This document shows positions 10,031-25,908 of a DNA stretch of 64,000 nucleotides, in pieces; the stretch's first letter is position 1; each line of letters opens with the position of its first letter. The translations under genes and the position numbers were made by a program. The notes under the pieces are model-generated. The model was given only the letters and a program-made list of their open reading frames with translations. It ran no database searches and was not told the origin of the DNA. Source of the stretch: an uncultured Bacteroidota bacterium (GTDB lineage Bacteria > Bacteroidota > Bacteroidia > Flavobacteriales > Flavobacteriaceae); assembly GCA_902526075.1 (NCBI GenBank), contig CABZJM010000006.1, forward strand, positions 1-64,000. The letters are read 5' to 3'.

Positions 10031-10056
10031 ATGAAAAAAAGCTAATACTATATCCA
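10031..10056 (+). repeat. Decayed leader cassette
   Basis: A remnant of the leader repeat (ATGAAAAAAAGCTAATACTA) with one extra A that shifts the frame. No gene follows it, and it runs into the 3' end of the opposite-strand methyltransferase. Confidence 0.55.
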
Positions 10057-10491
10057 TCTTCTTGTTTTAGTCTTATATAATATATATTCCTTACCAAATT
10101 TATCTGTAAGAAAGATCTCTTCTCTTTTTATTTGAAATCTACTTATCCAACAAACAAAAAGGATAGGTGTTGTAATTGTGAAAATATTTAAATAGAATAT
10201 TGATGTTGACGTAACAATCATCAGCAAACCTAAATACATAGGGTTTCTTGAATACTTATAGATTCCAGAGGTAATGAGTTTATTAACTTTTTTAAACTTT
10301 ATTGGGTCAATTGTAGTTTTTGATTTTATAAACTTAAAAATTGGATAAATTAATATAACCACTCCGATTAAAAGTATAATAAATGAAATTAAGTTTTGAT
10401 TTGGCAAAAGAATTAAATCAATTTTTTTGGATGAATAATAATTGGAAATAATTAAAATAAAAACTAGTAGAGGAGGTGGTATTTTTAACAT
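10048..10491 (-). CDS. Isoprenylcysteine carboxyl methyltransferase-like protein
   Basis: A 147-residue integral membrane methyltransferase of the ICMT/PEMT-like family. Four hydrophobic segments are seen. The conserved C-terminal part has SGIYKYSRNPMYLGLLMI (SAM-site motif RNPMYLG) and REEIFLTDKFGKEYILY followed by KTKTRRWI, matching the family's E-E-x-x-x-x-x-F-G-x-x-Y-x-x-Y pattern. Bacterial members probably methylate lipids or small thiols or acids, and the substrate here is unknown. It is a single gene, between two decayed leader-repeat copies. Confidence 0.8.
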   Translation of the reverse strand: MLKIPPPLLVFILIISNYYSSKKIDLILLPNQNLISFIILLIGVVILIYPIFKFIKSKTTIDPIKFKKVNKLITSGIYKYSRNPMYLGLLMIVTSTSIFYLNIFTITTPILFVCWISRFQIKREEIFLTDKFGKEYILYKTKTRRWI

Positions 10492-10506
10492 TTTTAAACT
10501 ACAAAT

Positions 10507-10530
10507 CTAATACTATTACTATTTATTCCA
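10507..10530 (+). repeat. Leader-cassette fragment without start codon
   Basis: Twenty-four bases (CTAATACTATTACTATTTAT plus TCCA) are identical to the codon 4-11 region of the signal-peptide genes at 20918 and 25246, but there is no ATGAAAAAG before them and no reading frame after. It is a relic just upstream of the methyltransferase start. Confidence 0.6.
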
Positions 10531-10576
10531 ATAGTATTTAGCTAAGATTTTTTTGCAAATCAAAATGATATATAAG

Positions 10577-10762
10577 TTATTTATTTTCCTTGTAGTGCCT
10601 TATAAGTCTTCTTATACCTAAAACAAAATAAATTGAACTAAGTCCAAGAATCCATACTGCCATTGTGGACTGATTCATTTCATCTGGAATATTAAAATAA
10701 ACCAGAATGGAAATAAAACCCATAACTAAATATAATCTGCCAATATTTAATAAACTGTACAT
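10577..10762 (-). CDS. Small two-helix membrane protein (61 aa)
   Basis: Two hydrophobic segments (LYLVMGFISILVYFNI and AVWILGLSSIYFVLGI) and a basic C-terminus (RRLIRHYKENK). This is a common layout for small flavobacterial membrane proteins of unknown function. It may be co-transcribed with the ICMT-like gene 86 bases downstream, with a leader-repeat relic between them. Confidence 0.5.
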   Translation of the reverse strand: MYSLLNIGRLYLVMGFISILVYFNIPDEMNQSTMAVWILGLSSIYFVLGIRRLIRHYKENK

Positions 10763-10876
10763 TAATGATATTTTTGTAATAATTCAAACACAAATTATAT
10801 ACCAGAAATACAACGAGTCTAATCATGCTTTAAGCGACTTTAGGTGATTTTCCATATGGTCACCACTTTTATACGC

Positions 10877-10901
10877 ACTGCCATGTAAGCGCCAAAGTAA
10901 T
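10877..10901 (+). repeat. Partial copy of the 47-bp intergenic repeat
   Basis: Shares ACTGCCATnTAA and GCCAAA with full copies at 15054-15100 and 27570-27616. It sits 12 bases before promoter cassette copy B. Confidence 0.4.
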
Positions 10902-10913
10902 ATAGGGGATATT

Positions 10914-10961
10914 AATATCCTCATTTGTTTCTTGACAAACCCTAAACAACTTGCTATATTG
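10914..10961 (+). promoter_or_regulatory. 48-bp promoter cassette, copy B
   Basis: Aligns without gaps to copies A and C. It starts AATATCCTC, has TTGAC at 10932-10936 and ends CTATATTG. The ATG of the 88-residue gene follows after 24 bases. Confidence 0.7.
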
Positions 10962-10985
10962 CAGATAAATTAAAAATATAGTTAT

Positions 10986-11252
10986 ATGAACTTAATGCTG
11001 ACAGCAAGTTGTAATGATTCTGATGATTTTAAAATAAATGGCTACGATAAAATAAAATCTGAATTTACTGAGTGGTGTGATTCTTCAAAATGTGTTTTTT
11101 GTAAAATTGATGATAAAAATGTTTTAGAACTTTTTTTTGATGTAAACCCGCCAAAACTTAAAGAATGGTTGGCTAAACCCTCCACTCAACAAATTTTTAA
11201 GGAACATAATTTTGTTCCAACAAGATATACTTTTGAGCCATTATCGATGTAA
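10986..11252 (+). CDS. Hypothetical protein (88 aa), possibly a dimeric alpha/beta-barrel fold
   Basis: A soluble 88-residue protein. The C-terminal half (LELFFDVNPPKLKEWLAKPS, then IFKEHNFVPTRYTFEPL) recalls small ferredoxin-like or antibiotic-monooxygenase-like domains in which a strand, a helix and a final strand end in a Y-x-F-x-P-L motif, but this is only a resemblance. Three cysteines lie close together (EWCDSSKCVFCK). The first residues contain TASC, yet the hydrophobic stretch is too short for a lipobox. It is driven by promoter cassette copy B. Confidence 0.55.
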   Translation: MNLMLTASCNDSDDFKINGYDKIKSEFTEWCDSSKCVFCKIDDKNVLELFFDVNPPKLKEWLAKPSTQQIFKEHNFVPTRYTFEPLSM

Positions 11253-11278
11253 TTTTCATAAATAAACTAAGATTCGAT

Positions 11279-11445
11279 ATGAAAAAAAAAATTATAATTC
11301 ATCTTATTGGCATAGTGTTGGGTATTTGCATCTTTTTTATGCATAAGCATTTGGTTTTAACTTTGATGGAGTAACGGGAATAGGACTTCTATTATTAATG
11401 ATTTTATTTGTGTTTTTTTGTCTGTGGTCTATAAAAATCCAATGA
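11279..11445 (+). pseudogene. Broken paralogue of the 55-residue membrane protein at 25690
   Basis: The sequence aligns along its whole length with the intact gene at 25690-25857. Both begin ATG plus ten A, and both carry a segment encoding FGFNFDGVTGIG. Here one T is lost from a T run near 11336-11338, shifting the frame so that translation ends at 11372-11374. A CAA codon has also become TAA, so restoring the frame alone would not repair it. The preceding bases (ATTCGAT) match the leader spacer. Confidence 0.75.
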
Positions 11446-11456
11446 AAAAGGAATAA

Positions 11457-11495
11457 ATGAAAAAACTAATACTAATGCTCTTTAATATATATTAA
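11457..11495 (+). repeat. Leader cassette ending in a 12-residue frame
   Basis: Encodes MKKLILMLFNIY then stop. It has the signal-peptide leader but no mature protein. Similar cut-off copies are at 23463 and 25879, where the leader also runs into FN. Confidence 0.5.
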
Positions 11496-11507
11496 AAGAC
11501 TAAAACA

Positions 11508-11951
11508 ATGAAAAGAAAAGTAAATGCAATTTGGCAAGGAGGTGGAGCAGATGGACAGGGTATATTAACGGCTCAAAGCGGTGCTTTTAATGAAATGCCA
11601 TACAGTTTCAAAACGAGGTTTGAAAATGATAACGGTGTTCTTGGTACAAATCCTGAGGAATTGATCGCTGCAGCTCTTGCAGGTTGTTTTAATATGAAAT
11701 TAAGTTTTGTTTTAAATGAAAACAATTTCCATCCTATTGAATTGAATACAGATGCCATATTAATATTTGAGGATGGTAAAATAGTTGAAATATTGCTGAA
11801 ACTTATTGCAAAAGTACCTGAAATTAGTAAAATTTTATTTGATGAATTTGTGCTCGAAGCAAAAAATAATTGCCCTATCTCAGGAGCTTTAAATTGCAAT
11901 ATTTATGTAAATTCTACATTAGCATCAGAAACTAATAAATACACGATATGA
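11508..11951 (+). CDS. OsmC/Ohr family peroxiredoxin
   Basis: A 147-residue thiol peroxidase expected to reduce organic hydroperoxides in the cytoplasm. Both catalytic cysteines are present: C60 in the helix ELIAAALAGCFNM and C122 in NNCPISGAL. The N-terminal strand region contains the TRFENDNGVLGTNPEEL motif, the GTNPEEL part being typical of OsmC. The stop overlaps the ATG of a lipoprotein gene (ATGA). Confidence 0.88.
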   Translation: MKRKVNAIWQGGGADGQGILTAQSGAFNEMPYSFKTRFENDNGVLGTNPEELIAAALAGCFNMKLSFVLNENNFHPIELNTDAILIFEDGKIVEILLKLIAKVPEISKILFDEFVLEAKNNCPISGALNCNIYVNSTLASETNKYTI

Positions 11952-12970
11952 AAAAACTATTATTTCTTATTATAGCAATTTTTATTTCATTCTCTTGTTC
12001 TAATGAAGCACTGGATGAAAACCAAAATAATGTACAATCATTTGTATTTGTAGCTTGTGAAGGAAACTTTGGAGCAAGTAACGGATCAGTATACTATTTC
12101 AATCAATCTGGAGATATATTTTCAGTAGATAATATTGGAGATATTGTTCAATCCTTAGAGGTTTATAATGACAAACTTTTTGTTATTGTAAATAATAGTC
12201 ATAAAATCATCGCTTACGATATAACGGAAAATGGATTGAGTTTACCTGGGATTGAGGTTTCAACAAATGGATCAAGTCCAAGAGAAATGGTTATAGTTGA
12301 TGATTACTTGTACTTTACTAACTGGAATACAAATGATATTAAAAGATTGAATTTATTTAATTACATAATATCTGATTTTTCAACTCTTGATGGAAAACCT
12401 GAGTCTATTATCCACGATAATGGGAAGCTTTTTGTAGCAATGCAAATGAATAATGATTACTCTGATTCTAATAAAGTTTATCAAATTTCCATTGATACAG
12501 GAACAATAGAAGAAGAGTGGACAGTTGGATTTGGTCCAACCTCGATTATCAAGGACGATAATAATATTTATGTAGCGAATACATATTATGATGAAAATTT
12601 TAATGCATTTTATGGAACATCCAGACTTGATGTAATTAATGATGAAGTAATTATTAATAATTACAATGAGGGTGTAGTTTGTGGGGGCTCAATACATAAA
12701 TTTAGTTCAAGTATTTTTAGATCGTCAGATGGGGGAATAGTCTCATTAGATGAAGATTTAAATTTTATTTCAAATACTAAAATTGGAGACGAAATACCGT
12801 CCCAATTATATTCTACAGAGATAATAAATAATAAAATATATTTTGGTGTTACAAATTTCACAGATATTAACTTGGTAAAAATATATAATTCAAATAATGA
12901 GCTTGAATCTACCTATGAAGTTGGGTTATTCCCTGGTGATTTTGCATATTGGGGGTTTGAAGAAAATTAA
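11948..12970 (+). CDS. Beta-propeller lipoprotein (YncE/DUF5074-like)
   Basis: A 340-residue lipoprotein with its lipobox at IFISFSC (Cys17). Repeated units such as LFVIVNNSHKIIAYDI, LYFTNWNTNDIKRLNL, LFVAMQMNND and IYVANTYYDENFN show a propeller of WD/YncE type. Proteins of this family in Bacteroidetes are surface exposed, often of unknown function, sometimes linked to metal or vitamin uptake. The start overlaps the OsmC stop by four bases, so the two are co-translated. No enzymatic residues can be assigned. Confidence 0.75.
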   Translation: MKKLLFLIIAIFISFSCSNEALDENQNNVQSFVFVACEGNFGASNGSVYYFNQSGDIFSVDNIGDIVQSLEVYNDKLFVIVNNSHKIIAYDITENGLSLPGIEVSTNGSSPREMVIVDDYLYFTNWNTNDIKRLNLFNYIISDFSTLDGKPESIIHDNGKLFVAMQMNNDYSDSNKVYQISIDTGTIEEEWTVGFGPTSIIKDDNNIYVANTYYDENFNAFYGTSRLDVINDEVIINNYNEGVVCGGSIHKFSSSIFRSSDGGIVSLDEDLNFISNTKIGDEIPSQLYSTEIINNKIYFGVTNFTDINLVKIYNSNNELESTYEVGLFPGDFAYWGFEEN

Positions 12971-13084
12971 TTATAAAACACGTAGGAGAATTTATAGTTT
13001 AAATATTTTTTGAAAAATAATAGTTATTTTTTTAACCAAGAAGTTCAAAAGTTTGCTAAATTAATAGGGAGATATATCTATGTT

Positions 13085-14299
13085 TTAATTTTTTATAGAT
13101 GTTACATAAACGGTAAACCCTGATAGGAACGCTACAGCTCCAAAAATCATAAAACTCTGAGAAATCGATAGTCCAGCTCCAATTAGATATCCTCCGATTA
13201 ATGGACTTATTACTGCACCAAATCTGCCTAATCCAATTCCCCATCCAATTCCTGTTGTTCTAAATTCTACAGGGTATATTCTTGCAGCAAATGCATATAG
13301 ACCGACAAACCCACCTTGAATTGTGAAACCCAATACTCCAAAAATAAATAGCATTAAATCAGAATCAATAAAATATCGAATTAGAGTCATCAAGACACAG
13401 GTTAAAATCATAAAAGTTGATATGACTCTTTTGAGCCCAAATTTTGACGAGAAATAACCTTGTGTAATAATACCCAAAAATGCGCCAACATTAAATATTA
13501 TTCCTGAGTAAATACCCAGCTCCAAAGATAAACCCATATCTGTAACCAATTTAGGAATCCAACTAATTAAATAATACAAACAAACAAATGCAGAGAAAAA
13601 AGCAATCCAAAGCTTTAGTGTTTGATCAATATATTTTTTGTTTAATAATTCATTTATGGCAATTTGATCATTATTTTTTTTATATGCTGGTAGGGTCTTT
13701 ATATTTGCAATCTTGAGTTTATCAAAAATCCTATTTATGCGCGAAATTGCATTAATTGGTTGACTCTTAATTAAAAATCCTAAAGACTCAAACAAAAAAT
13801 AATAAACAATAGGTATGAGTAATACAGAGAGGCTGCCAAAAACTATGTAAACATATTGCCAAGAATATTTAAATAAAATGATATTTGATAAATAGCCTGC
13901 TAACATGGCACCGACAGGATATCCAGCTAAAACAAAACTAATCCAAAATTCCTTTGACCTGTCAGGTGTATATTCTGAAACAAGAGAAACAGTACTTGCT
14001 AGCATAGTACCAATTCCTATTCCACTTAAAAATCTTAAAAAAGTTAGTTGAATTATATTTTTAGAGAAAGCAGTGAAGAAAACTCCTAAAGAAATAATTA
14101 TAGTACTAATCAAAATAATTTTTTTCCTACCCAATTTATCAGCATAAGGAGCTAAAAAAAGCGCACCAATTGCCATTCCAAATAAACCAGAGCTAAATAC
14201 AATACCCAATGTCTCAGGGGAAATATCCCAAAAGGAAACGATAGATGGAGCTGTGTATGAAATAACAAGAACATCCATACCATCAATTACATTTAACAA
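13085..14299 (-). CDS. Major facilitator transporter, aromatic acid:H+ symporter-like
   Basis: An MFS transporter of twelve helices. The first segment has NVIDGMDVLVISYTAPSI, matching the D-G-x-D motif of the AAHS/PcaK branch that imports aromatic acids. The loop motif GALFLAPYADKLGRKK and the R-F-L-S-G-I-G-I-G motif are also typical. The coordinates use the TTG at 14299, which removes half of helix 1. Family-like sequence continues upstream in frame to an ATT at 14380 (giving KLKYIKYLIDKKPISSFQL), but no ATG, GTG or TTG is found there. The start may therefore be non-canonical or lost. Confidence 0.78.
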   Translation of the reverse strand: MLNVIDGMDVLVISYTAPSIVSFWDISPETLGIVFSSGLFGMAIGALFLAPYADKLGRKKIILISTIIISLGVFFTAFSKNIIQLTFLRFLSGIGIGTMLASTVSLVSEYTPDRSKEFWISFVLAGYPVGAMLAGYLSNIILFKYSWQYVYIVFGSLSVLLIPIVYYFLFESLGFLIKSQPINAISRINRIFDKLKIANIKTLPAYKKNNDQIAINELLNKKYIDQTLKLWIAFFSAFVCLYYLISWIPKLVTDMGLSLELGIYSGIIFNVGAFLGIITQGYFSSKFGLKRVISTFMILTCVLMTLIRYFIDSDLMLFIFGVLGFTIQGGFVGLYAFAARIYPVEFRTTGIGWGIGLGRFGAVISPLIGGYLIGAGLSISQSFMIFGAVAFLSGFTVYVTSIKN

Positions 14300-14407
14300 A
14301 AAACATATAAAAATAATGGATAATTGAAAAGAAGATATTGGCTTTTTGTCTATTAAATATTTGATATACTTAAGTTTAATTTTTAATCAATTAATTGTAG
14401 ATAAATA

Positions 14408-14437
14408 AAAACCCTCTGCAACTAGCAAGAGGGTTTT
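14408..14437. terminator. Bidirectional terminator
   Basis: A perfect 10-bp stem AAAACCCTCT/AGAGGGTTTT with a 10-base loop. The A and T tracts on either side allow it to act in both directions. It lies just after the fasciclin gene stop on the minus strand. Confidence 0.8.
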
Positions 14438-14458
14438 AATAAGCTTAATTAAATATAA

Positions 14459-14959
14459 TTATTCAGGCATTATCACAGAGTCAATAACATGAATTACTCC
14501 GTTTGTTCCGATCACATCAGTTGCAATCACCTCACTCATATTACCATCTTTATCTTTTAAAAATATTTTATCCCCCTTTGAACTAGCAACAAATTTTTGA
14601 CCATTTAGTGCAGTAAGGCTGGTTTTTCCATAACCATTTTTTAGAGCTTTTGTAATATCGCTGGCCATTAATTTTCCTGAAACAACGTGATACGTTAAAA
14701 TATTTGATAGAACTTTTACATTTTCTGGCTTGAGCAAGTCTGCTAAAGTATCAGAATCAATTTTAGCAAATGCATCATTGTTTGGTGCAAATACAGTAAA
14801 TGGACCCTCTCCACTTAGAGCGCCAACTAAGTCAGCAGCTTTTAATGCTGTTACAAGAGTTGAAAAGTCTTTGTTAGAAACTGCAGCATCAACAACTGTT
14901 TGAGCTGAAATTGTAATAGATATTAACAAAGTAGTGATCGTTAAAATTAGATTTTTCAT
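14459..14959 (-). CDS. Secreted fasciclin (FAS1) domain protein
   Basis: A 166-residue protein with a signal peptide (MKNLILTITTLLISITISAQ) and one full FAS1 domain. The H1 motif is FTVFAPNNDAF (about residues 53-63), the YHVV motif is in NILTYHVVSGKL, and H2 is NGVIHVIDSVIMP at the end. Such proteins mediate adhesion or act at the cell surface. I chose the ATG at 14959 because the signal peptide begins there. An upstream ATG would add 16 residues. It has its own strong terminator. Confidence 0.88.
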   Translation of the reverse strand: MKNLILTITTLLISITISAQTVVDAAVSNKDFSTLVTALKAADLVGALSGEGPFTVFAPNNDAFAKIDSDTLADLLKPENVKVLSNILTYHVVSGKLMASDITKALKNGYGKTSLTALNGQKFVASSKGDKIFLKDKDGNMSEVIATDVIGTNGVIHVIDSVIMPE

Positions 14960-15053
14960 TTTTATATATTTTAAATTGAATTGGTACATAAACAAACTTA
15001 ATGCCAATTTTTATCAAAGTTTTGAAGTGCCAGATGAACTACAACTTTTTTTT

Positions 15054-15100
15054 AGGACTGTCATATAACCGCCCAATAATTGAAACTTTAAGATGTAACT
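15054..15100 (+). repeat. 47-bp intergenic repeat, copy 1
   Basis: Aligns without gaps to 27570-27616 at 39 of 47 positions. Both begin AGGACTG, contain CATATAAC and end TGTAACT. It lies in the gap between two minus-strand genes. Confidence 0.6.
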
Positions 15101-15137
15101 TAAATAAAAAATTAAATCACAATTGTGTATTTTTATT

Positions 15138-16044: not shown

Positions 16045-16075
16045 ATGAAAAAAGCTAATACTATTAATATTTATC
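16045..16075 (+). repeat. Frameshifted leader cassette
   Basis: ATGAAAAAAGCTAATACTAT matches the leader repeat with one extra A, so the signal-peptide frame is lost. It precedes the methyltransferase ATG by 46 bases but does not encode part of it. Confidence 0.5.
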
Positions 16076-16093
16076 ACTCTTATTTATTGCTAA

Positions 16094-17023
16094 ATGATCA
16101 AAATTAATAATTGTCCTGTGTGTGGATCAACTTCTTTAAGATCCTATATTAAGACAACCTCTCAAATGCACCATGATGATAGTCTATTTAATTTTGATAA
16201 ATGCAATAAGTGTGATTTTGTTTTTCTAAATCCGAGATTAAAATTTGAAGATTTGAAAAACTACTATTCGTCTAATTACTTACCATATCGTGGCGCAAAG
16301 GCTTGGGGAAAATTTGAATGGTTTGTCTCACAAAGTCAAAAAAAACTAGATTTAAGGAGGGTAAAAGCAATAAAAGATATTCAAAGTCTTGGTAAAGAGT
16401 CGGTAATCTTAGATATTGGCTGTGGAAACCCTACTTTTCTAAAAGCTTGTCAACAAAAATTAAATTGTAAAACAATTGGAATTGACTTTAACGATGCAGG
16501 TTGGAGAAATCAATTAAATAGCTTTAAAAAAATTGATTTAAGAGTTGGTGAGGTCAAAGATTTACCAGCCGATCTTCATCCAGATGTAATTACAATGTGG
16601 CATTATCTTGAACACGATTATAATCCTATTAGAAGCTTAAAGTCATTAAAAAAAATCTCCAAACCATCCACTAAGCTAATAATAGAGGTTCCTAATTTTA
16701 ACTCTTCAAGTAGAAAAAAATATGCGAAAAACTGGGCTGGCTGGCACACACCTAGACACCTGTCGTTATTCTCACCCAAAAATATTCAACTGTTACTAAA
16801 AAAAAGTAGGTGGAACATTTCTAAAGTTTTTACATATGGAACTATGGATCCTTATTTACTATACTGGATGAGTGAAATGGAAAAAAAAGGGATAGACTGG
16901 GATAAGAATATGGAAGAAGAATTTATTGGTTTTGTATTCGGAATGATTAAATTTTTTCCTTTCAAATTTTACGAAAAAAAATCCTCACTAGGCATTATGA
17001 CGATTATTGCGAATTCAAAATAA
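16094..17023 (+). CDS. Class I SAM methyltransferase with N-terminal zinc ribbon
   Basis: A 309-residue cytoplasmic methyltransferase. Residues 7-40 form a zinc ribbon (CPVC ... CNKC). The SAM-binding motif VILDIGCGNPTFL follows near residues 112-124, then GIDFND for the acidic ribose contact and MWHYLEHDYNP in the UbiG-like motif. This combination is common among enzymes that methylate sugars or secondary metabolites. It is convergent with the carotenoid genes with only 3 bases between the stops. A link to carotenoid or glycolipid modification is possible but not shown. Confidence 0.78.
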   Translation: MIKINNCPVCGSTSLRSYIKTTSQMHHDDSLFNFDKCNKCDFVFLNPRLKFEDLKNYYSSNYLPYRGAKAWGKFEWFVSQSQKKLDLRRVKAIKDIQSLGKESVILDIGCGNPTFLKACQQKLNCKTIGIDFNDAGWRNQLNSFKKIDLRVGEVKDLPADLHPDVITMWHYLEHDYNPIRSLKSLKKISKPSTKLIIEVPNFNSSSRKKYAKNWAGWHTPRHLSLFSPKNIQLLLKKSRWNISKVFTYGTMDPYLLYWMSEMEKKGIDWDKNMEEEFIGFVFGMIKFFPFKFYEKKSSLGIMTIIANSK

Positions 17024-17026
17024 TTT

Positions 17027-17728: not shown

Positions 17729-17740
17729 ATTAGATTATAA

Positions 17741-18379
17741 TCATTGTAAAATTAAATTTAAAGAAACAAAAAATGTAAAAATTGCAGTATATAAATTAAA
17801 TGAAAGTTTAAACTCTTTTTCCTTAAATTGAATATTGTAAACAGTTTGTGTTAATATGCTAATAATTAGCCATCCTATATAATTTGACGTTGGTACCACT
17901 AAATTATTAAACCTCCATAAATCTAATTTAGGTGCAATAGGCTCCATAACAAAATCCATAACCAACATTAATGAAGTTCCCACAATAATTATCAGCAAAG
18001 TACTATTATTTTTTATCAGGATTGAGGCAATATTTGCGCAAATTACAGTCAATATTACCCAATTTAAGCCAATTAAGAATGGTACACCAAAAAGTTTAAA
18101 TCCTAAATTATTTCCATAAATATATTCTCCAAAAATTAATCCGTAATTAACCCCAATAAACTCAGAAAACATACCAGTTAAAAAAATTAATAAAAGAGAA
18201 AATATTTGATTCTTATTATTCAATTTAATATTTGCAAATAGAATTATTGACATCAGAAAAAGATTTATTGATGTATAACCTGCAAAGAAATCAAGATCGT
18301 AAAACACCATACCCAAAAGACCAGAAATATGTACTAGCCAAATTATAAATATTGATATGTTTTTTTTATTCGCTTTCAA
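17741..18379 (-). CDS. cruF: CruF-like carotenoid 1',2'-hydratase
   Basis: A 212-residue membrane protein with about seven helices, of the 'carotenoid biosynthesis protein' (DUF422) family that includes CruF. The family signature is seen in GLIFGEYIYGNNLGFKLFGV, then PFLIGLNWVILT, and VMDFVMEPIAPKLDLWRF. CruF hydrates the terminal double bond of a psi end group to a tertiary alcohol, the step before 3,4-desaturation by CrtD. Its start overlaps the crtD stop region by 14 bases, so the two are translationally coupled. Confidence 0.8.
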   Translation of the reverse strand: MKANKKNISIFIIWLVHISGLLGMVFYDLDFFAGYTSINLFLMSIILFANIKLNNKNQIFSLLLIFLTGMFSEFIGVNYGLIFGEYIYGNNLGFKLFGVPFLIGLNWVILTVICANIASILIKNNSTLLIIIVGTSLMLVMDFVMEPIAPKLDLWRFNNLVVPTSNYIGWLIISILTQTVYNIQFKEKEFKLSFNLYTAIFTFFVSLNLILQ

Positions 18380-19778
18380 TTAAATCAGAAACTATTTTTG
18401 ATGATAAAATTGCTAAAGGTATCCCACCACCTGGATGTACACTTCCTCCACAGAAGAAAAGATTTTTTATTTTTTTTGTGAAATTTGGGTGTCTCATAAA
18501 AGAGGACATAATATTATTACTTGAGCTCCCATATAATGAACCGTTAAATGAGTTTGTATTTGATTCTAAATCAATTGGGGTGTAAACTTTTTCTTTTACT
18601 ATGTTTTTCCCAATCTCTATGCCAAGTATTTTTTCAAGTTTGTTAATTATTTTTTTTCTACTTATTTGAATTTGTCTATCCCAGTTTTGATTAATATTGT
18701 ATGGTGAATTAATCATAACAAACCAATTCTCTGACCCTTTGGGGGCATCCGATGAAACGTCCTTGCACGAAATATTAACATAAACAGTGGGGTCGTCAAA
18801 AACTTGTTTTTTTTGAAAGATTGAATTAAACTCCTCCTTGTAATTTGAAGAAAAAAATATGTTGTGAAGGTCTAACTTATCACAAGTTCCTTTTATTCCC
18901 CAATAAAAAATTAAAGCAGAGCTAGAGCTTTCATTTTTCAAAGATCTATGATTAAATTTTTGTTTTATTAGTTTTTTATAGGTAAAATTTACTCTTATCT
19001 TTTTGGCAGCTTTTTTTTCTATAATAATCTCGTCAACATTACACCCAAAATAAAATTTTACTCCTATTTGCTTCGCTAATTTGAATAAGACATCTGTTAT
19101 TTCATACATCCCCCCTTCAGGCACAAATGTTCCGAAATGATTTTCTAAGTGTTGAATTAATGTCATCATACCGGGAGTTTTGTAAGGAGATGAACCATTG
19201 TATGTAGCATACCTGTCAAAAATTTGTATTAGGTATTTATTTTTTAATTCATCTGAATTTACTTCATTTAATGTTTTATTTATTTGAAAAATATTTAAGC
19301 TAAATAGAGCTTTGACTGTTTCAATATTTAAAAAACTAGAAAATTTATGTAGTGATTTTCTTAAAAAAATCTTCTCCGTTAAATCATATTTTATTTTTGC
19401 CTTTTTTAAATATTTATCTACCACAGACTCGTCTACCATGAATTTATTTTTAACCTCTTTTAAAAATTTTTTTCTATTTGAGTATGCAGTAAATTTTGTT
19501 TTATCATCCCAAAAATATTTACAATGTATTTTCTTTTTTTTATAATTAAAATAATCCCTAGGATTCAAATTATTGATTTCAAATAACTCGTCTACCAGCT
19601 GTGGCATAGTAAATAATGAAGGGCCAGCATCAAATCTAAATCTGTCCAATTTGAAAGTATTAAGTTTTCCACCAGGCAATTTGTTTTTTTCATAGACCTC
19701 CACATCGAACCCTTTAGACCTTAGTCGTATTGCAGCACTTATTCCACTTACTCCTGAACCTATTATTGAAATTTTCAT
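18366..19778 (-). CDS. crtD: CrtD-like carotenoid 3,4-desaturase
   Basis: A 470-residue FAD-dependent desaturase of the phytoene desaturase family. It has the N-terminal Rossmann motif GSGVSGISAAIRL, then LPGGKLNTF and RFDAGPSLFTMP. The middle has YNGSSPYKTPGMMTLIQHLE and FVPEGGMYEITD, and the C-terminus has FFCGGSVHPGGGIPLAILS. The CrtD role (desaturating 1-hydroxy acyclic ends) is inferred from coupling to cruF. Around residues 260-280, IRVN runs directly into FTYKKL, and the usual aDxVVsNaD segment is missing, an apparent in-frame deletion of about 20 residues. The rest is well conserved. Confidence 0.78.
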   Translation of the reverse strand: MKISIIGSGVSGISAAIRLRSKGFDVEVYEKNKLPGGKLNTFKLDRFRFDAGPSLFTMPQLVDELFEINNLNPRDYFNYKKKKIHCKYFWDDKTKFTAYSNRKKFLKEVKNKFMVDESVVDKYLKKAKIKYDLTEKIFLRKSLHKFSSFLNIETVKALFSLNIFQINKTLNEVNSDELKNKYLIQIFDRYATYNGSSPYKTPGMMTLIQHLENHFGTFVPEGGMYEITDVLFKLAKQIGVKFYFGCNVDEIIIEKKAAKKIRVNFTYKKLIKQKFNHRSLKNESSSSALIFYWGIKGTCDKLDLHNIFFSSNYKEEFNSIFQKKQVFDDPTVYVNISCKDVSSDAPKGSENWFVMINSPYNINQNWDRQIQISRKKIINKLEKILGIEIGKNIVKEKVYTPIDLESNTNSFNGSLYGSSSNNIMSSFMRHPNFTKKIKNLFFCGGSVHPGGGIPLAILSSKIVSDLIESE

Positions 19779-20845: not shown

Positions 20846-20917
20846 TCAAAAAAATAAAAGTGATTAAATATTGTTGCGTATTTTGGACTAAATTGTTGTT
20901 ACAGAAAAAAGAAATAA

Positions 20918-21505
20918 ATGAAAAAGCTAATACTATTACTATTTATTCCATTTGTTTCCTTTGGTCAAATAAATGATCAGGACTTTAATCTAACCTTTAG
21001 TGATATTTCAGAATATCCAGCCGAATTTTCTCAAGCTACTATTGTTTCAAGAATGATTGAGGGTCTTGGTTATAGATATTATTGGGCTTCAAAATCGCTA
21101 AGTGAAACAGACTTGGAATACAAATCAAGTGAAGATGCAAGATCTACATTTGAAATAATCAAACATATATATAGCTTGACTAATATGATTTCTTCATCGT
21201 TTAAAAATCAACAATATGGATTTTCAGATGTAAATTATAGTTATAAAGAGTTAAGAGAAAAAACGTTATTAAATTTGAAATACATTCACGAACAATTAAA
21301 ATTAAATCCTGATTTCTCGAAGCTAATGATAAGGTTCGAAAGAGGTGGTAATTTGATGGAGTTTCCATTTTGGAATCAAATTAATGGGCCAATTTCTGAT
21401 GCTTTATGGCATTGTGGTCAAGTAGTTATGAATAGAAGAGCAAGTGGAAACCCGATACAATCAGGGGTAAATGTATTTATAGGAAAAACTTCAGGCTCAA
21501 ACTAA
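20918..21505 (+). CDS. Secreted DinB-like protein
   Basis: A 195-residue protein that starts with the repeated signal peptide MKKLILLLFIPFVSFGQ. The mature part looks like a DinB-type four-helix bundle: SRMIEGLGYRYYWASKSLSE, a histidine in EIIKHIYSLTNMI, and a C-terminal WHCGQVVMNRRASGNPI, where the H and the R-x-x-G-N-P pattern are typical. DinB folds usually bind a metal through three histidines, and a thiol transferase role is known for some. An exported member is unusual. It heads a run of short plus-strand genes. Confidence 0.65.
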   Translation: MKKLILLLFIPFVSFGQINDQDFNLTFSDISEYPAEFSQATIVSRMIEGLGYRYYWASKSLSETDLEYKSSEDARSTFEIIKHIYSLTNMISSSFKNQQYGFSDVNYSYKELREKTLLNLKYIHEQLKLNPDFSKLMIRFERGGNLMEFPFWNQINGPISDALWHCGQVVMNRRASGNPIQSGVNVFIGKTSGSN

Positions 21506-21518
21506 ACCAACATTCGAT

Positions 21519-22253
21519 ATGAAAAAGTTTATAAAAGACTACAGTATTTCACAAATACTAAATAAAATAGCAAATCCCTTAATCATAGTTCTTGGAATAC
21601 TACTCTCTTTTTATTTAGACAATATGGTTGAGAGAAATAATAAAATTGAATATAAAAATTTTGTTATAAAAAATCTTAAAATGATTTTAATTGAAGACTT
21701 GTCAAATATAGAGAAAATAAAGAGCTTACAGAATGATTGCTATATAGCCTGTGAAACTTTAATAAACGACATAAAAGATGGTAAAATTGATTTGAGTGAA
21801 AAAGAAATTGCTACAAATTATTTATTAATAAGTCAAAATGGTTGGACATCTTTTTTTCCTCAAAATTCAACTTATGATGAACTTATTTCAACGGGATCGA
21901 TGGAAATAATTTCATCTGTTAACTTTAGAAAATCTCTTACCAATACTTATACACATTTGTACGAAAGAAACCTCCAAATCTCAAGAACAATTGATGATTT
22001 TTTTCTAATGTCTAATAGTAAATTTGGTCCTCATTTTGTTATTGAATACGGAACAAAACAAGATGAAGGATATATATATGACGATTTGGTACCGATTTCA
22101 TATAAAATTAATAAAGACTTTTATTTATCAAACACTGCTATTTCAGATTTACTTCAAGCGAAGAAACTTATTGGAAACTATTTGAATTTATTAGAAGAGT
22201 ATGAAAACTCATATTTAAAACTTCAATTACACGCAGAGGAGGAAATAAACTAA
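21519..22253 (+). CDS. DUF6090-like membrane-anchored protein
   Basis: A 244-residue protein with a single N-terminal membrane helix (IANPLIIVLGILLSFYLDNM) and a long helical, charged remainder. Motifs such as GWTSFFPQNSTYDELISTGSMEII and a C-terminal coiled helix match the DUF6090 group of Bacteroidetes, whose function is unknown. It starts 13 bases after the DinB-like stop, preceded by the spacer motif CCAACATTCGAT directly before the ATG. Confidence 0.6.
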   Translation: MKKFIKDYSISQILNKIANPLIIVLGILLSFYLDNMVERNNKIEYKNFVIKNLKMILIEDLSNIEKIKSLQNDCYIACETLINDIKDGKIDLSEKEIATNYLLISQNGWTSFFPQNSTYDELISTGSMEIISSVNFRKSLTNTYTHLYERNLQISRTIDDFFLMSNSKFGPHFVIEYGTKQDEGYIYDDLVPISYKINKDFYLSNTAISDLLQAKKLIGNYLNLLEEYENSYLKLQLHAEEEIN

Positions 22254-22269
22254 TAAACCAACATTGGAT

Positions 22270-22824
22270 ATGAAAAAGCTTATACTATTACTATTTGTAT
22301 CTTTACTTTTTGAAATCCCTATGAGCTCCCAGGATCTTGACTTGATTAATCCGTCTAAAGATATCGGAACAAAAAACTGGACTATTGTCAACGATGATGT
22401 TATGGGGGGTATTTCCAAGTCTAAAGTTTTAATTAATGACAAAAAAAATTTAATTTTTGAAGGCTATCTATCTCTTGAAAATAACGGGGGATTTGCTTCG
22501 TCAAGGATAGATATCGGAAAAAAGAATCTTAATGGTATAAAGTTTTTTGAGCTTAAATTAAAGGGTGATGGGAATAATTATAAACTTAGGTTAAGGCAAA
22601 AAAATATGCGTGCTTATTATTCATGTGATTTTAAGTCTCAAAAAAATGAATGGATAATTGTAAAACTCTCGGTTGAAGATTTTAGACCAACTTGGAGGGG
22701 ATATACCTATTCAAATTATCCAGACTTAAATCTTGACAAAATAAATTCGTTAAGCCTTCATATCTCTGACAAACAGGAAGGTAGATTTAATTTAGAAGTA
22801 GAATATATTAAAGCAGTTAAATAA
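22270..22824 (+). CDS. Secreted CIA30-family protein
   Basis: A 184-residue protein of the CIA30/NADH:ubiquinone oxidoreductase intermediate-associated family, in bacteria a carbohydrate-binding-like beta-sandwich. The family opening NWTIVNDDVMGGISKSKV is clear, followed by FEGYLSLENNGGFASSRI and a C-terminal LSLHISDKQEGRFNLEVEYI. The start at 22270 gives the leader-type signal peptide MKKLILLLFVSLLFE. The spacer CCAACATTGGAT lies immediately upstream. Export makes a role in complex I assembly unlikely. Confidence 0.75.
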   Translation: MKKLILLLFVSLLFEIPMSSQDLDLINPSKDIGTKNWTIVNDDVMGGISKSKVLINDKKNLIFEGYLSLENNGGFASSRIDIGKKNLNGIKFFELKLKGDGNNYKLRLRQKNMRAYYSCDFKSQKNEWIIVKLSVEDFRPTWRGYTYSNYPDLNLDKINSLSLHISDKQEGRFNLEVEYIKAVK

Positions 22825-22842
22825 AGCAACTTACTACATATA

Positions 22843-22890
22843 AATATCCTCGTTTCTTGCTTGACAAAACTTAAACAACTTACTATCTTG
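22843..22890 (+). promoter_or_regulatory. 48-bp promoter cassette, copy C
   Basis: The best-preserved copy. It starts AATATCCTCG, has TTGAC at 22861-22865 and ends CTATCTTG. The ATG of the NTF2-like lipoprotein is 27 bases downstream. Confidence 0.72.
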
Positions 22891-22917
22891 TAGACACATT
22901 AAACAAAATACGATATT

Positions 22918-23442
22918 ATGAAAAACTATTTTAAATTTTACTCACTGTTAATAATTTCATTATTATTATTTGGGTGCAATAATACAGAGCAGCCAAATAT
23001 ATTTGGGTATGAGTCTGAGGATGGAAATAAAGTAAATATAACTACTGGAAATCAAGCATCACTTGACGTAATTGTAAACTATTTTGAAGGATATAACAAT
23101 AAAGATCTTGAAACTGTTGAAAGTTTAGAACATGAGGACTTTTTGGGCTTTGCACATACAGGTCAGGTTGTTGAAGGAAGTAAGCAACACATTGAAATGT
23201 CTAAGCAATTTTTAGATCAGTTTCCCAATGCAAAATGGGAAATATTATGGTCTATTTCTTCCGAAATAAATTTTAGAGATAAACCTTCCGAAAATTGGGT
23301 AACAACTTGCTTGAACACAAGTTATGGTGAGGGTGATACTGCAAATAATTTCCAAAGAATTTTTGATGCACAAATAATTGATGGGAAAATTAAAAAAGCT
23401 TACTTGTATCAAAGAGATATGTCGGATAGAGAAATAAAATAA
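22918..23442 (+). CDS. NTF2/SnoaL-like lipoprotein, second
   Basis: A 174-residue lipoprotein (lipobox LLLFGC, Cys20) with an NTF2-like domain: an N-terminal helix (SLDVIVNYFEGYNNKDLETV), EHEDFLGFAHTGQVVEGSKQ, and a beta-rich end with IDGKIKKAYLYQRD. It is distantly similar in layout to the gene at 8057 but not a close copy. The 48-bp promoter cassette C lies just before it. No active-site residues can be assigned. Confidence 0.65.
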   Translation: MKNYFKFYSLLIISLLLFGCNNTEQPNIFGYESEDGNKVNITTGNQASLDVIVNYFEGYNNKDLETVESLEHEDFLGFAHTGQVVEGSKQHIEMSKQFLDQFPNAKWEILWSISSEINFRDKPSENWVTTCLNTSYGEGDTANNFQRIFDAQIIDGKIKKAYLYQRDMSDREIK

Positions 23443-23462
23443 TTGACTAACCAATATAAGAA

Positions 23463-23492
23463 ATGAAAAAGGTAATACTTTTACTATTTAAT
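23463..23492 (+). repeat. Leader cassette without a mature gene
   Basis: ATGAAAAAGGTAATACTTTT encodes MKKVILLLFN and continues to a stop at residue 26. It aligns with 25879 beyond the leader (TTTAATT, ATCTA, TGAATTT), so the two relics share a common origin. Confidence 0.5.
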
Positions 23493-23526
23493 TTATCTAA
23501 TGAATTTATATTAATTTTATTTACAG

Positions 23527-23784
23527 ATGGAAATCATTGATTACATATTCATAATTTGCTGTGTAATAGGCATTTTTGCATTATTGGTATTAATAATACG
23601 TCCATTCATTCCAAAATATATGATGCTTGAAAGTAAAGAAATTAACGTTAAAAGAGGGGAAAGAATTGGCGCTTTAATGGGGATTATTATTGGAGTTTTT
23701 ATACTTTTTTATATTAACGTTAATGGTTATTATGATATGATTGTTGACTATTTAGAAAGTCTATTATATAAGAGTAACATATGA
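23527..23784 (+). CDS. Small membrane protein (85 aa)
   Basis: Two hydrophobic helices (YIFIICCVIGIFALLVLII and IGALMGIIIGVFILFYINV) separated by a charged loop (LESKEINVKRGER). The function is unknown. Its stop is separated by one base from the ATG of the T9SS-sorted propeller protein, so the two are probably translated together. Confidence 0.55.
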   Translation: MEIIDYIFIICCVIGIFALLVLIIRPFIPKYMMLESKEINVKRGERIGALMGIIIGVFILFYINVNGYYDMIVDYLESLLYKSNI

Positions 23785-23785
23785 A

Positions 23786-25237
23786 ATGAATAAGTTAATA
23801 GTATTACTATTTATTCCTATAATTAACATTGCTCAAATAATCCCCGATAATTCGGATTACAATCAAAATATAATTTGGGAAAGTGTTTTCACTGAGGGAA
23901 ACGCCGGGAAAGTAAACAAAGGTTTAGTAGATTCTGATGGAAATTTAGCTGTTGTATTTATGCCTGACAATCAATCAAGGATTCATAAAATTGATGGTCA
24001 AAACGGAGAACTAATATGGTCCATAACAATAAATAATACTGTAGGTTTTGGCATTACAGAAATTAATGATAATAACAGGGTTGATTATATAGTTAGTGGT
24101 GGATCAGGAAACACACAAGAAAGGTGGATGGCAAGACTGAATGGAGACAATGGGTCAATAATTTGGAATCAGGATTACAATTCAAGTGGAAGCTCATCAA
24201 TGTTTGATGGTATAAGGTCAACTATTGTAGGAAACGACGGATATATTTATGGCGCCGGATTCATCGGTGGAGACGAGTCTGATACAATTTTTATAGTCTA
24301 TGGGGGAAATTCGATGACGATAAAAGTGAACCCATCTAATGGACAAGAAATTTGGACAGCTATCAATAGTCAAACAGAATATGCGGTCTCAATTGTTGAA
24401 TCTTCTAATGGAGATCTATATTACGGCTCAACTAATTACGAAGGCGACCTGACTTTAACAAAGTTAAATAATAGTGGCAATGAATTATGGACACGTAATT
24501 TGTACGGTACAGAGGGAATAATTCCTGCCGATTTGGACATTCATAATGACATAATTTATTACGGTGGACATCGGGAAAGAGAGGGTAACGGAGAACCGTT
24601 TGACTATTCATCTATCAAAATTGACTTAGAGGCAAATATACTCTGGGCTAAACATTATGCAAACCCAAGGGGTTACGATTTAGAATATATAAGAAACGAA
24701 TTATACGGTATAAAAGTTTCTGATGATGGGGTATATTTATTTGGGGGAACTGGCGATGAAAATGAGTCGTATTCTGCTACTAACCCACCATTTGAATCAT
24801 CAGATATTTGGAATGGATGGGTTTTATTTACTGATTTTAACGGTAACATAATTAGAAGTGATGTTTTTTGCCACGAGGAAGTAAATACTGCAACTGAATA
24901 TGGTGACTTAACCGAAAATGGTTTTGTAATATTTAACGATACTGATGCTTTTGGAGATACTGAAGTTGGTGTTATGAAGATTATTAATCCAAGTTTAACA
25001 AATAACAATTATAATATTTCAAATCTAATTGACTTTTTTCCAAACCCATCATCTCAATATATTAATGTAAATATTGATTCAGAGTTGGAAGTAGTCGTTT
25101 TTGATCTGATTGGTAAAGAATTGTTTAGAAATAAGATTAATGGTAGGCTTGATATAAGCTCATTAGAAAAAGGCACTTATATAATTAATATTACAGATGG
25201 TAGTAATACCTCAACACATAAAATAATCAAAGAGTAA
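23786..25237 (+). CDS. Secreted beta-propeller protein with T9SS sorting domain
   Basis: A 483-residue protein with a leader-type signal peptide (MNKLIVLLFIPIINIAQ), PQQ/WD-like propeller repeats (IHKIDGQNGELIWSI, RLNGDNGSIIWNQDY, VNPSNGQEIWTA, KLNNSGNELWTRN, DLEANILWAKHYA) and a C-terminal type A sorting domain from about residue 415 (DFFPNPSSQYINV ... GTYIINITDG ... KIIKE). It should cross the outer membrane by the type IX system and end up on the surface or in the medium. No enzyme site is visible. Confidence 0.8.
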   Translation: MNKLIVLLFIPIINIAQIIPDNSDYNQNIIWESVFTEGNAGKVNKGLVDSDGNLAVVFMPDNQSRIHKIDGQNGELIWSITINNTVGFGITEINDNNRVDYIVSGGSGNTQERWMARLNGDNGSIIWNQDYNSSGSSSMFDGIRSTIVGNDGYIYGAGFIGGDESDTIFIVYGGNSMTIKVNPSNGQEIWTAINSQTEYAVSIVESSNGDLYYGSTNYEGDLTLTKLNNSGNELWTRNLYGTEGIIPADLDIHNDIIYYGGHREREGNGEPFDYSSIKIDLEANILWAKHYANPRGYDLEYIRNELYGIKVSDDGVYLFGGTGDENESYSATNPPFESSDIWNGWVLFTDFNGNIIRSDVFCHEEVNTATEYGDLTENGFVIFNDTDAFGDTEVGVMKIINPSLTNNNYNISNLIDFFPNPSSQYINVNIDSELEVVVFDLIGKELFRNKINGRLDISSLEKGTYIINITDGSNTSTHKIIKE

Positions 25238-25245
25238 GATACGAT

Positions 25246-25671
25246 ATGAAAAAGCTAATACTATTACTATTTATTCCATTAATGTCTTTTGGGCAATCCG
25301 AAACTGAAAATAATGCTAAACTGAACTATGAAATAATTGAAAGTGTGCCCATTTTTCCAGGGTGTGAGAGGGGAAATAATGAGAAAAAAAGAAAATGTAT
25401 GTCTGATAAGATTGCAAAATTTGTTGCAAAGGAGTTTGACGTAGGTTGTGCGGATGGGCTAGGGTTTTCTGGAAAACAAAGAATCGCTGTTATTTTTAAA
25501 TTTGACACCTTAGGAAGAGTTGTTGGAGTAAGAGCTCGAGCACGTCATCCTAAATTAGAAAGAGAAGCGGTAAGAGTGGTTAAAATGCTACCTATAGTGA
25601 AACCTGGGACTCAAGACGGAAAAAAAGTAATAGTCCCATACAGTTTGCCAATTTTTTTTATGGCTAATTAA
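25246..25671 (+). CDS. Secreted TonB C-terminal-like protein
   Basis: A 141-residue protein starting with MKKLILLLFIPLMSFGQ, followed by a TonB C-terminal-type domain. The flavobacterial pattern VPIFPGCERG ... KCMSDKIAKFVAKEF is clear, then IAVIFKFDTLGRVVGVRAR and LEREAVRVVKMLPIVKPG. Unlike a true TonB it has a cleavable signal instead of a membrane anchor and no proline-rich spacer, so it is probably a free periplasmic relative. It begins 8 bases after the propeller gene. Confidence 0.75.
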   Translation: MKKLILLLFIPLMSFGQSETENNAKLNYEIIESVPIFPGCERGNNEKKRKCMSDKIAKFVAKEFDVGCADGLGFSGKQRIAVIFKFDTLGRVVGVRARARHPKLEREAVRVVKMLPIVKPGTQDGKKVIVPYSLPIFFMAN

Positions 25672-25689
25672 CAACAACCAACATACGAT

Positions 25690-25857
25690 ATGAAAAAAAA
25701 AATTACTTTAAACCTAATTACAATAGTTATTGGTATAGTTATATTTTTTTATGCTCAAGAATTTGGTTTTAACTTTGATGGAGTTACGGGAATAGGACTG
25801 ATTTTGCTATTGTTTTTGTTTGCATTTTTTGGTATTTGGAGTAAAATAAATCAATAA
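25690..25857 (+). CDS. Small two-helix membrane protein (55 aa)
   Basis: MKKKITLNLI is followed by a helix (TIVIGIVIFFYA), a polar loop (QEFGFNFDGVTG) and a second helix (IGLILLLFLFAFFGIWS). The spacer CCAACATACGAT stands immediately before the ATG. A frameshifted paralogue at 11279-11445 shows that the gene has been duplicated in this genome. The function is unknown. Confidence 0.6.
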   Translation: MKKKITLNLITIVIGIVIFFYAQEFGFNFDGVTGIGLILLLFLFAFFGIWSKINQ

Positions 25858-25865
25858 AAAATTAA

Positions 25866-25908
25866 ACCAACATACGATATGAAAAAGCTAATACTTCTAC
25901 TATTTAAT
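25866..25908 (+). repeat. Spacer plus leader cassette without a gene
   Basis: The spacer CCAACATACGAT and ATGAAAAAGCTAATACTTCT are intact but the frame stops after MKKLILLLFN. It is the clearest example of the repeat standing without a downstream protein. Confidence 0.6.

What the first reader, a model, noticed from the sequence alone, without database searches (positions are those of the whole stretch)
10031..25908. Leader cassette copied as DNA: spacer plus signal-peptide start, with and without genes
A unit of CCAACATACGAT followed by ATGAAAAAGCTAATACTATT and ACTATTTATTCC recurs. It supplies the signal peptide MKKLILLLFIP of genes at 20918, 22270, 23786 (variant) and 25246, and stands as relics at 10031, 10507, 11457, 16045, 23463 and 25879. 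Synonymous positions are conserved, so this is recent copying of DNA and not selection on protein alone. It could be a way to convert captured genes into secreted ones.
Basis: partly seen in the sequence, partly recalled or inferred. Interest (0 to 1): 0.75.

Follow-up and report, generated by a model that had tools for sequence, protein, structure and literature searches.

The report
Signal-peptide DNA as gene-exchange anchor
In one genus of small ocean bacteria the same short stretch of DNA, coding the start of secreted proteins, has been copied in front of dozens of unrelated genes and often marks the places where genes are swapped in islands beside tRNA genes.

Summary
In detail: all ten leader sites named exist, and the leader is far beyond chance (8 matches against 0.09 expected). 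The 12-base spacer is a separable piece. The pattern is genus-wide: the 32-base leader occurs 108 times in 20 of 21 genus genomes, 59 times exactly, and in 2 of 247 other family genomes. It heads 47 unrelated gene bodies; its third codon positions are 82% identical between unrelated genes, against 54% for an orthologous housekeeping gene. The window lies in a hypervariable island ending at tRNA-Asn. 235 of 952 homologous-block ends fall on the repeats in both genomes, against 4 expected, or 198 of 807 against 30 at gene edges. At tRNA-Thr, two genomes share one left arm before different genes, and two share an almost identical gene behind different arms; identity jumps from about 65% to 100% at the leader. 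Best reading: the leader is an exchange anchor; relics are scars or block edges. 'Making captured genes secreted' is not supported: the seven comparable homologue families have their own signal peptides. The recombinase is unidentified.

The parts
20918..21505 (+). leader gene, 195 aa, MKKLILLLFIPFVSFGQ..., exact 32-base leader, no spacer upstream
21507..21518 (+). spacer/core CCAACATTCGAT before a DUF6090 gene (21519-22253) that lacks the leader
22258..22269 (+). spacer/core CCAACATTGGAT
22270..22824 (+). leader gene, CIA30 family (PF08547)
22823..22903 (+). promoter-like repeat P1 (third copy in the window; others at 9018 and 10894) before a SnoaL-like gene 22918-23442 (below Pfam cut-off)
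23463..23518 (+). leader relic that recurs at the left edge of the 85-aa gene (23527-23784) in four other genomes
23786..25237 (+). variant-leader gene, PQQ-like protein with secretion-system C-terminal sorting domain (PF18962)
25234..25245 (+). core variant overlapping the stop codon of the previous gene (GTAAGATACGAT)
25246..25671 (+). leader gene, 141 aa, weak TonB_C match (below Pfam cut-off)
25678..25689 (+). exact spacer/core before the 55-aa gene 25690-25857
25867..25908 (+). exact spacer/core plus leader relic; the tail after it recurs to the left of the P2-c8 block in G011 and G013
26009..26060 (+). promoter-like repeat P2 starting with GCAACATACGA, before the c8 lipoprotein-like gene 26075-26428
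10031..10051 (+). leader relic, frame-shifted, abutting the 3' end of antisense gene c3 (10048-10491, PEMT)
10507..10531 (+). leader relic without ATG
11457..11484 (+). leader relic behind a broken second copy of the 55-aa gene
16045..16075 (+). leader relic, frame-shifted, before methyltransferase gene 16094-17023
27054..27233 (-). inverted cassette: core CCAACACACGAT and a 55-aa gene; the only minus-strand core that is followed by ATGAAAAAG
26996..27067 (+). relic of an integrase 3' end, 82% identical to 28797-28868
26467..26500 (+). second relic of an integrase 3' end
27571..27592 (.). ACTGCCA-N4-ACTGCCA, read as an old integrase arm site; related stretch at 15054
   Evidence: reading by eye
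27679..27735 (+). 57-bp duplication of the tRNA-Asn 3' part (86%), far end of the restriction-modification island
27804..28865 (+). tyrosine integrase (PF00589) of that island
36458..36532 (-). tRNA-Asn (gtt), right anchor of the hypervariable region
6897..8015 (+). left flank gene c21, shared by several regions (recalled as CorC/DUF21-like, not tested)

Best explanation
The region is a tRNA-Asn accretion island in which small genes are exchanged as blocks between cells of the genus. The composite repeat (spacer CAACATACGA, then ATGAAAAAG, then CTAATACTATTACTATTTATTCC), together with promoter-like repeats, stands at many block edges and gives the short homology where crossovers happen. A crossover in the leader swaps what lies downstream and keeps the signal peptide in frame. 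A crossover that leaves the homology early leaves a cut leader in front of another gene, which is the relic. Blocks also sit on tiny tRNA-integrated inserts (tRNA-Thr, tRNA-Arg) in which no integrase was listed, so DNA probably arrives on such elements. Shown: leader copies before unrelated genes, reordered blocks, enrichment of block ends at the repeats, and at tRNA-Thr one arm with two different genes and one gene with two different arms, the change lying at the leader. Inferred: that crossing-over in the repeats is the usual cause; that it is RecA recombination where 30 or more bases match and short-homology recombination where only about 10 do; that helper integrases move the inserts.
For: Genus specificity and copy number. 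DNA-level identity over 47 unrelated bodies, dropping at the signal-peptide end. Gene-order maps differ between shared flanks. Block ends on repeats: 235 of 952 against 4.0 expected, 198 of 807 against 29.6 in the gene-edge control. Close pair G003/G020 (RseP 93%): two small blocks in swapped order with joints at ATGAAAAAG. tRNA-Thr inserts: G018 and G004 have the same left arm (91 of 98) before unrelated genes; G018 and G011 have the same gene (281 of 281 aa behind the leader) behind different arms (71 of 99); identity rises from 0.63-0.67 to 1.00 at the leader and stays there to the tRNA copy, one mismatch in about 1 kb; each insert ends in a 48-bp copy of the tRNA 3' end. tRNA-Arg insert in G018 with a 42-bp duplication. 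Same left gene with several right modules. Block ends spread over the repeat (-24 to +1 and +6 to +52). Leader identity does not follow body identity.
Against: No crossover has been caught in the act. Of 45 relic joints compared, only 12 show an overlap between the two parents, so short homology is not demonstrated joint by joint. 717 of 952 block ends are not on a repeat in both genomes. Block ends are not independent, since one old joint is seen in many pairs. ComEC was not detected in any of 21 incomplete genomes, so the usual DNA-uptake route is unlikely. The spacer core is almost all on one strand and very short, which a site-specific enzyme would also explain. Three of the off-array leader loci scanned for tRNA genes (L105, L108, L110) show none.
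Confidence: 0.66

Rival explanations
1. A dedicated site-specific recombinase, integron-like or Xer-like, cuts at AACATACGA and moves cassettes as units; the leader is only hitch-hiking behind the site.
For: AACATACGA with up to 1 mismatch: 138 sites on the plus strand against 18 on the minus, 81 of 156 exact; it is followed by leader, P1, P2 or other starts and preceded by ends of different genes. Mycoplasma vpma genes shuffle by a Xer enzyme at sites in the 5' untranslated region before conserved signal peptides (PMC2268961, passages).
Against: 83 of 161 leader copies have no core. Joints also lie in ATGAAAAAG or in the leader; the tRNA-Thr swaps change at the leader with no core before it. 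Besides one or two Xer-like genes per genome, an integrase lies by the array only in G000 and G020, with weak relics in G011. No attC-like fold at six boundaries. Y1 transposase above cut-off in 0 of 21.
Confidence: 0.2
2. Constraint on the start of secreted genes (peptide, mRNA start region or codon bias) keeps the leader the same without copying.
For: The copies that head genes do encode signal-peptide-like starts: 35 of 97 lipobox-like, 35 of 97 with a Gln-type end, by pattern.
Against: Spelling probability 4e-5 but 50 of 63 exact; other genera spell the peptide differently; relics without reading frame keep the sequence.
Confidence: 0.04
3. The leader genes are one old family made by duplication, with bodies diverged beyond recognition.
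For: All share one start and, mostly, one neighbourhood.
Against: Bodies include CIA30 and sorting-domain proteins and Kazal-like ones (by eye). Leader identity stays at 0.91-0.97 whatever the body identity, and homologous bodies exist with other signal peptides. Gene swap behind one arm at tRNA-Thr.
Confidence: 0.04
4. The relics are real short leader-peptide genes that regulate the gene behind.
For: The relics before c30 and c8 recur in several genomes.
Against: Relic frames run from 0 to 46 codons; some lack ATG or are frame-shifted.
Confidence: 0.04
5. The joints are artefacts of single-cell amplification or assembly.
For: The records are bins or, by their AG- names (recalled), single cells.
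Against: The repeats also appear in records titled MAG from other projects (MED-G13, MED-G59, isolate 5_5); the same joints recur in different genomes; joints cluster at tRNA islands.
Confidence: 0.02

Closest known systems
Mycoplasma agalactiae vpma / M. bovis vsp loci (Xer1)
   Same: genes with conserved 5' untranslated region and signal-peptide DNA and different bodies; exchange point just before or in that region (PMC2268961, passages)
   Different: there a gene family reshuffled by a dedicated Xer1 within 72 bases before the start codon, giving phase variation; here unrelated genes, exchange between genomes, no dedicated enzyme found, leader often without the spacer
Tycheposons and tRNA-anchored flexible islands of streamlined aquatic bacteria
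   Same: tRNA-anchored, repeated tRNA ends, variable cargo; the additive islands with tRNA-Lys repeats in Methylophilaceae start at 330 bp and one gene, so tiny inserts are not new (PMC10872708, passages)
   Different: tycheposons are given there as 4-200 kb with a tyrosine recombinase; here 0.7-1.1 kb inserts list none, and the cargo genes share an exchangeable signal-peptide leader
Vibrio cholerae vgrG-3 effector modules, homology-facilitated illegitimate recombination
   Same: conserved 5' part proposed as anchor, different 3' part joined at variable length, old genes left downstream (PMC5361080, passages)
   Different: there a long conserved gene part; here a leader of about 30-50 bases before many unrelated families, plus promoter-like repeats as further anchors
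Integron cassette arrays
   Same: small genes, one main orientation of the boundary site, common short site at many boundaries
   Different: no attC-like fold at the six boundaries tested, antisense genes inside blocks, joints not confined to one site

Membership tests
Tycheposon / tRNA-integrating element | integration at a tRNA gene with duplicated tRNA end | tested here: met
   tRNA-Asn 57 bp, tRNA-Thr 48 bp, tRNA-Arg 42 bp; no duplication found within the fetched stretches at the tRNA-Ala and tRNA-His loci
Tycheposon / tRNA-integrating element | tyrosine recombinase inside the element | tested here: not met
   met for the restriction-modification island (27804-28865); not met for the tRNA-Thr inserts, whose single gene fills them, and seen by the array in only 2 of 21 incomplete genomes
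Integron cassette array | attC sites folding as single-strand hairpins | tested here: not met
   six window boundaries fold no better than shuffles, z -1.3 to +1.7
Integron cassette array | integron integrase IntI next to attI | tested here: inconclusive
   PF00589: array-side integrase in 2 of 21, weak relics in 1; IntI-specific features not tested
Mycoplasma vpma-type locus | conserved 5' region and signal peptide before different bodies | tested here: met
Mycoplasma vpma-type locus | dedicated Xer-type recombinase encoded in the locus | tested here: not met
   (G000 and G020 have a phage-type integrase nearby, the others none found)
Mycoplasma vpma-type locus | switching within a clonal population | not testable with these tools
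   needs clones or long reads
Homology-facilitated illegitimate recombination | homologous anchor on one side, non-homologous joint on the other | tested here: inconclusive
   leader match lengths at relics vary from 17 to 50, but only 12 of 45 joints show an overlap with the other parent
IS200/IS605 or REP-type cassettes | Y1 transposase in the genome | tested here: not met
   0 of 21 above cut-off, one weak broken match in G014

The most novel reading that the evidence does not exclude
A genus-wide cassette exchange system in which signal-peptide DNA and its 10-base upstream core are themselves the recombination site, worked by a recombinase not yet recognised (perhaps the housekeeping Xer pair) and fed by integrase-free mini-elements at several tRNA genes, so that any secreted protein of one cell can be dropped behind the leader of another.
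Probability: 0.2. Interest if true: 0.88.

Novelty: new variant of a known kind. Interest (0 to 1): 0.7.

Why it matters
It shows how a streamlined, uncultured ocean bacterium could trade surface and secreted proteins gene by gene: the shared signal-peptide DNA makes a swap in-frame and export-ready. It links two things usually treated apart, tRNA islands and shuffling of surface genes, and gives a test case for whether short repeated gene starts can stand in for a cassette integrase.

Tried and rejected
Integron attC idea: no hairpins at six boundaries. Y1-transposase cassettes: none above cut-off. ComEC uptake: none detected (control in 10 of 14 known genomes). Viral carriers: 0 exact matches of the 21-mer in viral contigs. 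Xer/dif likeness of the core was looked at by eye only and not tested. Short-homology test at each relic joint: 12 of 45 with an overlap, most copies too diverged. Generality: 24 small genomes of other genera, chosen by me, were searched for tRNA-Asn; 14 of their 3' flanks were fetched. The six stretches above 7 kb were scanned for 14-mers with at least 3 copies: none in five, other repeats in G214; genus arrays in the same scan gave 8 to 43. One 2.2-kb stretch was not scanned and seven are under 1.3 kb because the contig ends there.

It is not: it lacks the leader gene but holds another insert (a 290-aa gene) that ends in the same kind of arm and tRNA copy. Searches, made for that check, gave the arm and gene combinations at tRNA-Thr; for them I raised the confidence of the main reading from 0.62 to 0.66 and lowered three small rivals by 0.01 each.

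Rows set aside: the non-leader partners G003C8:6818, G009C5:1765 and G002C13r:3513 lack the N-terminus, G015C29r:492 holds the leader inside, and G020C8:8573 shares only a C-terminal part; these say nothing on the signal-peptide question. In one search block ends within 60 bases of a region end were dropped, and only plus-strand matches were used. Copies were chosen on their first 20 bases, so only positions from 20 on count as evidence. Of the leader copies outside the first 20 regions, those in G002:C11, G015:C13 and G015:C14 were not fetched.
Full report
What is there. The window is AT-rich (30% GC). Relatives of the same genus include, by matching contig lengths, uncultured marine records such as AG-390-J14, AG-894-C03 and Bacteroidetes bacterium MED-G13. 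The leader ATGAAAAAGCTAATACTATT is present 8 times against 0.09 expected, and the two weaker relics are visible. The spacer CCAACATACGAT is real but separable: exact at 25678 and 25867, variant at 21507, 22258, 25234 and on the other strand at 27222-27233. In this genome 10 of 11 matches to spacer end plus start fall in this one island.

Spread. With up to 2 mismatches the 20-mer CCAACATACGATATGAAAAA is in 19 of 21 genus genomes, mostly in one or two clusters. It is in 8 of 128 other genomes, 9 hits in all; the reversed control gives 11 hits in those genomes. With one mismatch it is in 18 of 21. The 32-base leader with up to 3 mismatches occurs 108 times in 20 of 21 genus genomes, 59 times exactly, control 0. 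Of 249 family genomes two are of the genus; of the other 247, two have one copy each. An exact 21-mer scan of genome contigs gave 21 stretches, 18 of them on contigs with the length of a genus contig fetched here; viral contigs gave none. Outside the genus, G063 (the record JAQWSC, isolate cluster2_bin.5) has one spacer-like hit before another start and a differently spelled leader. G214 carries the leader with one mismatch behind a TTATTGTAAATTGT stretch that also recurs in the arrays; I read it as a transfer.

Copying, not only selection. Among 161 leader copies in the loci examined, 97 head a frame of 50 codons or more, with bodies in 47 unrelated families, and 64 are relics with frames of 0 to 46 codons. 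Positions 20-35, not used to pick the copies, are 68-98% conserved over the 47 families, third codon positions 72-96%; conservation reaches background near base 48. Third positions of codons 7-10 are 0.82 identical between unrelated genes (4504 pairs), against 0.32 in their bodies and 0.535 for the orthologous RseP gene over 12 genomes. 50 of 63 genes with MKKLILLLFI have the same 30 bases, a spelling with probability 4e-5 under local codon usage. In the 247 outside genomes a degenerate pattern for the peptide (Leu or Phe allowed) hits 6 genes: five other spellings and G214. Leader identity does not fall with body identity: 0.97, 0.91, 0.95 and 0.94 for body identities 0-40, 40-60, 60-80 and 80-100% (6, 31, 62 and 44 pairs; copies were pre-selected for the leader, which raises all four).

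The island. I mapped 21 regions from 18 genomes, window included. Between shared flanks the same gene families stand in different order and strand. The left flank is c21 (6897-8015) where the contig reaches it; the right flank in many is tRNA-Asn with c7 and RseP. The tRNA-Asn terminator motif is in 13 of the 21 regions. Second arrays in G008 and G010 end at tRNA-Ala. In the window an integrase-bearing restriction-modification island (27736-36457) has entered at tRNA-Asn, with a 57-bp duplication. Its ends carry paired ACTGTCA motifs 11 bases apart, and similar pairs (ACTGCCA and relatives) recur at tRNA-facing ends of arrays, in the window at 27571 and, degenerate, at 15054. I read them, by eye, as arm sites of old elements. 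Relics of integrase 3' ends lie at 26467 and 26996.

Block edges. AACATACGA with up to one mismatch occurs 156 times in the 21 regions: 138 on the plus strand, 18 on the minus. By the script's rules, on the plus strand it is followed by the leader (44), by other ATGAAAAA-like starts (28), by a cut leader (8), by promoter-like P1 (14) or P2 (18), or by something else (26, by eye mostly chance with a few P1 and P2 forms); before it stand the ends of many different genes. The 85-aa gene c30 has five different right neighbours in five genomes. Of 952 ends of 516 homologous blocks, 235 lie within 15 bases of a repeat in both genomes, against 4.0 expected (maximum 10 of 300). Among gene-edge positions it is 198 of 807 against 29.6 (maximum 50). 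Ends are not independent, since one joint is seen in several pairs. In the close pair G003/G020 two small blocks stand in swapped order, with joints at ATGAAAAAG. On the composite repeat, block starts spread from -24 to +1 and block ends from +6 to +52, with peaks near the ATG and at +7/+8. That argues against one fixed cut site, with the limit that BLAST ends are fuzzy.

The same leader on other tRNA islands. Beyond the first arrays the leader sits near tRNA-Thr in G018, G011, G004 and G019, tRNA-Arg in G018, tRNA-His in G002 and tRNA-Ala in G013 and G004. At L102 (G001) it is at tRNA-Asn; in L105, L108 and L110 no tRNA lies in the 4 kb fetched, and L103 was not scanned. Of 11 xer/tRNA-Thr loci fetched, 4 have such a leader gene. 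Three of these tell most. G018 and G004 have the same left arm between tRNA-Thr and leader (91 of 98) but unrelated genes of 301 and 188 aa counted from the leader. G018 and G011 have the same gene (281 of 281 aa behind the leader) but different left arms (71 of 99); G011's arm is like that of G010 (94 of 106), where a 290-aa gene without the leader stands. Between G018 and G011 the xerD side is 71% identical, the arm 63-67%, and from the leader to the copy of the tRNA end there is one mismatch after leader base 5. All these inserts end in a 48-bp copy of the tRNA end. The leader inserts are about 1.07 and 0.72 kb and list one gene. One arm with two genes and one gene with two arms, changing at the leader, is the clearest case of a leader-anchored and recent swap.

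Does it make genes secreted? Leader genes were compared with homologues that lack the leader. Where the partner is intact and homologous over the body (c8, Kazal-like c2, CIA30 and four more families), it has its own hydrophobic start or lipobox, and similarity resumes near the cleavage site or cysteine. No case of a cytosolic homologue turned secreted was seen. Signal peptides were judged by eye.

Mechanism and limits. An enzyme was looked for. PF00589 gives two genes read as XerC/XerD by size in 17 of 21 genomes and one in 4; an array-side integrase in G000 and G020; weak relics in G011. No Y1 transposase above cut-off and no ComEC in 21 genomes, all incomplete. Six boundaries do not fold like attC. 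I therefore favour homology-driven exchange between repeats, fed by tRNA-integrating elements, over a dedicated site-specific system, but the core's strand bias and shortness keep the rival alive. My library searches found no description of this arrangement (open-licence papers only, listings). Nearest prior ideas are Mycoplasma vpma (PMC2268961), homology-facilitated recombination at vgrG-3 (PMC5361080), tycheposons and tRNA-repeat islands (PMC10872708) and short variable segments flanked by repeats (PMC2884548); I read passages of these, and passages of PMC12416821, which did not mention cassettes.

Noticed in passing
window 27736-36457: Restriction-modification island (ResIII helicase-type enzyme, two DNA methyltransferases, tyrosine integrase) integrated at tRNA-Asn.
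   Followed up: partly
window 29343-29435 (-): SAM-I/IV riboswitch (Rfam RF01725, 54.6 bits) inside that island.
   Followed up: no
window 26467-26500 and 26996-27067; 12 copies in 6 array regions: The 3' end of the integrase gene recurs as a relic, in some places read outward into a TTATTGTAAATTGT promoter-like stretch; the same pair occurs at tRNA-Asn of another genus, G214 (L111).
   Followed up: partly
other genera, e.g. L112, L114, L116, L118, L119, L121, L123: Of 19 genomes of other genera with a full-length tRNA-Asn hit, the contig ends within 1.3 kb of the tRNA 3' end in 10 (7 of 14 fetched, plus G083, G170 and G077 by coordinates), as if this spot breaks assemblies family-wide.
   Followed up: no
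window 17741-19778 (-): Carotenoid biosynthesis protein (PF04240) and an amine-oxidase-type gene lie inside the exchanged region; homologous gene pairs occur in several genus regions.
   Followed up: no
window 11285-11449: A broken second copy of the 55-aa gene 25690-25857 (five stops in frame), also followed by a leader relic.
   Followed up: no
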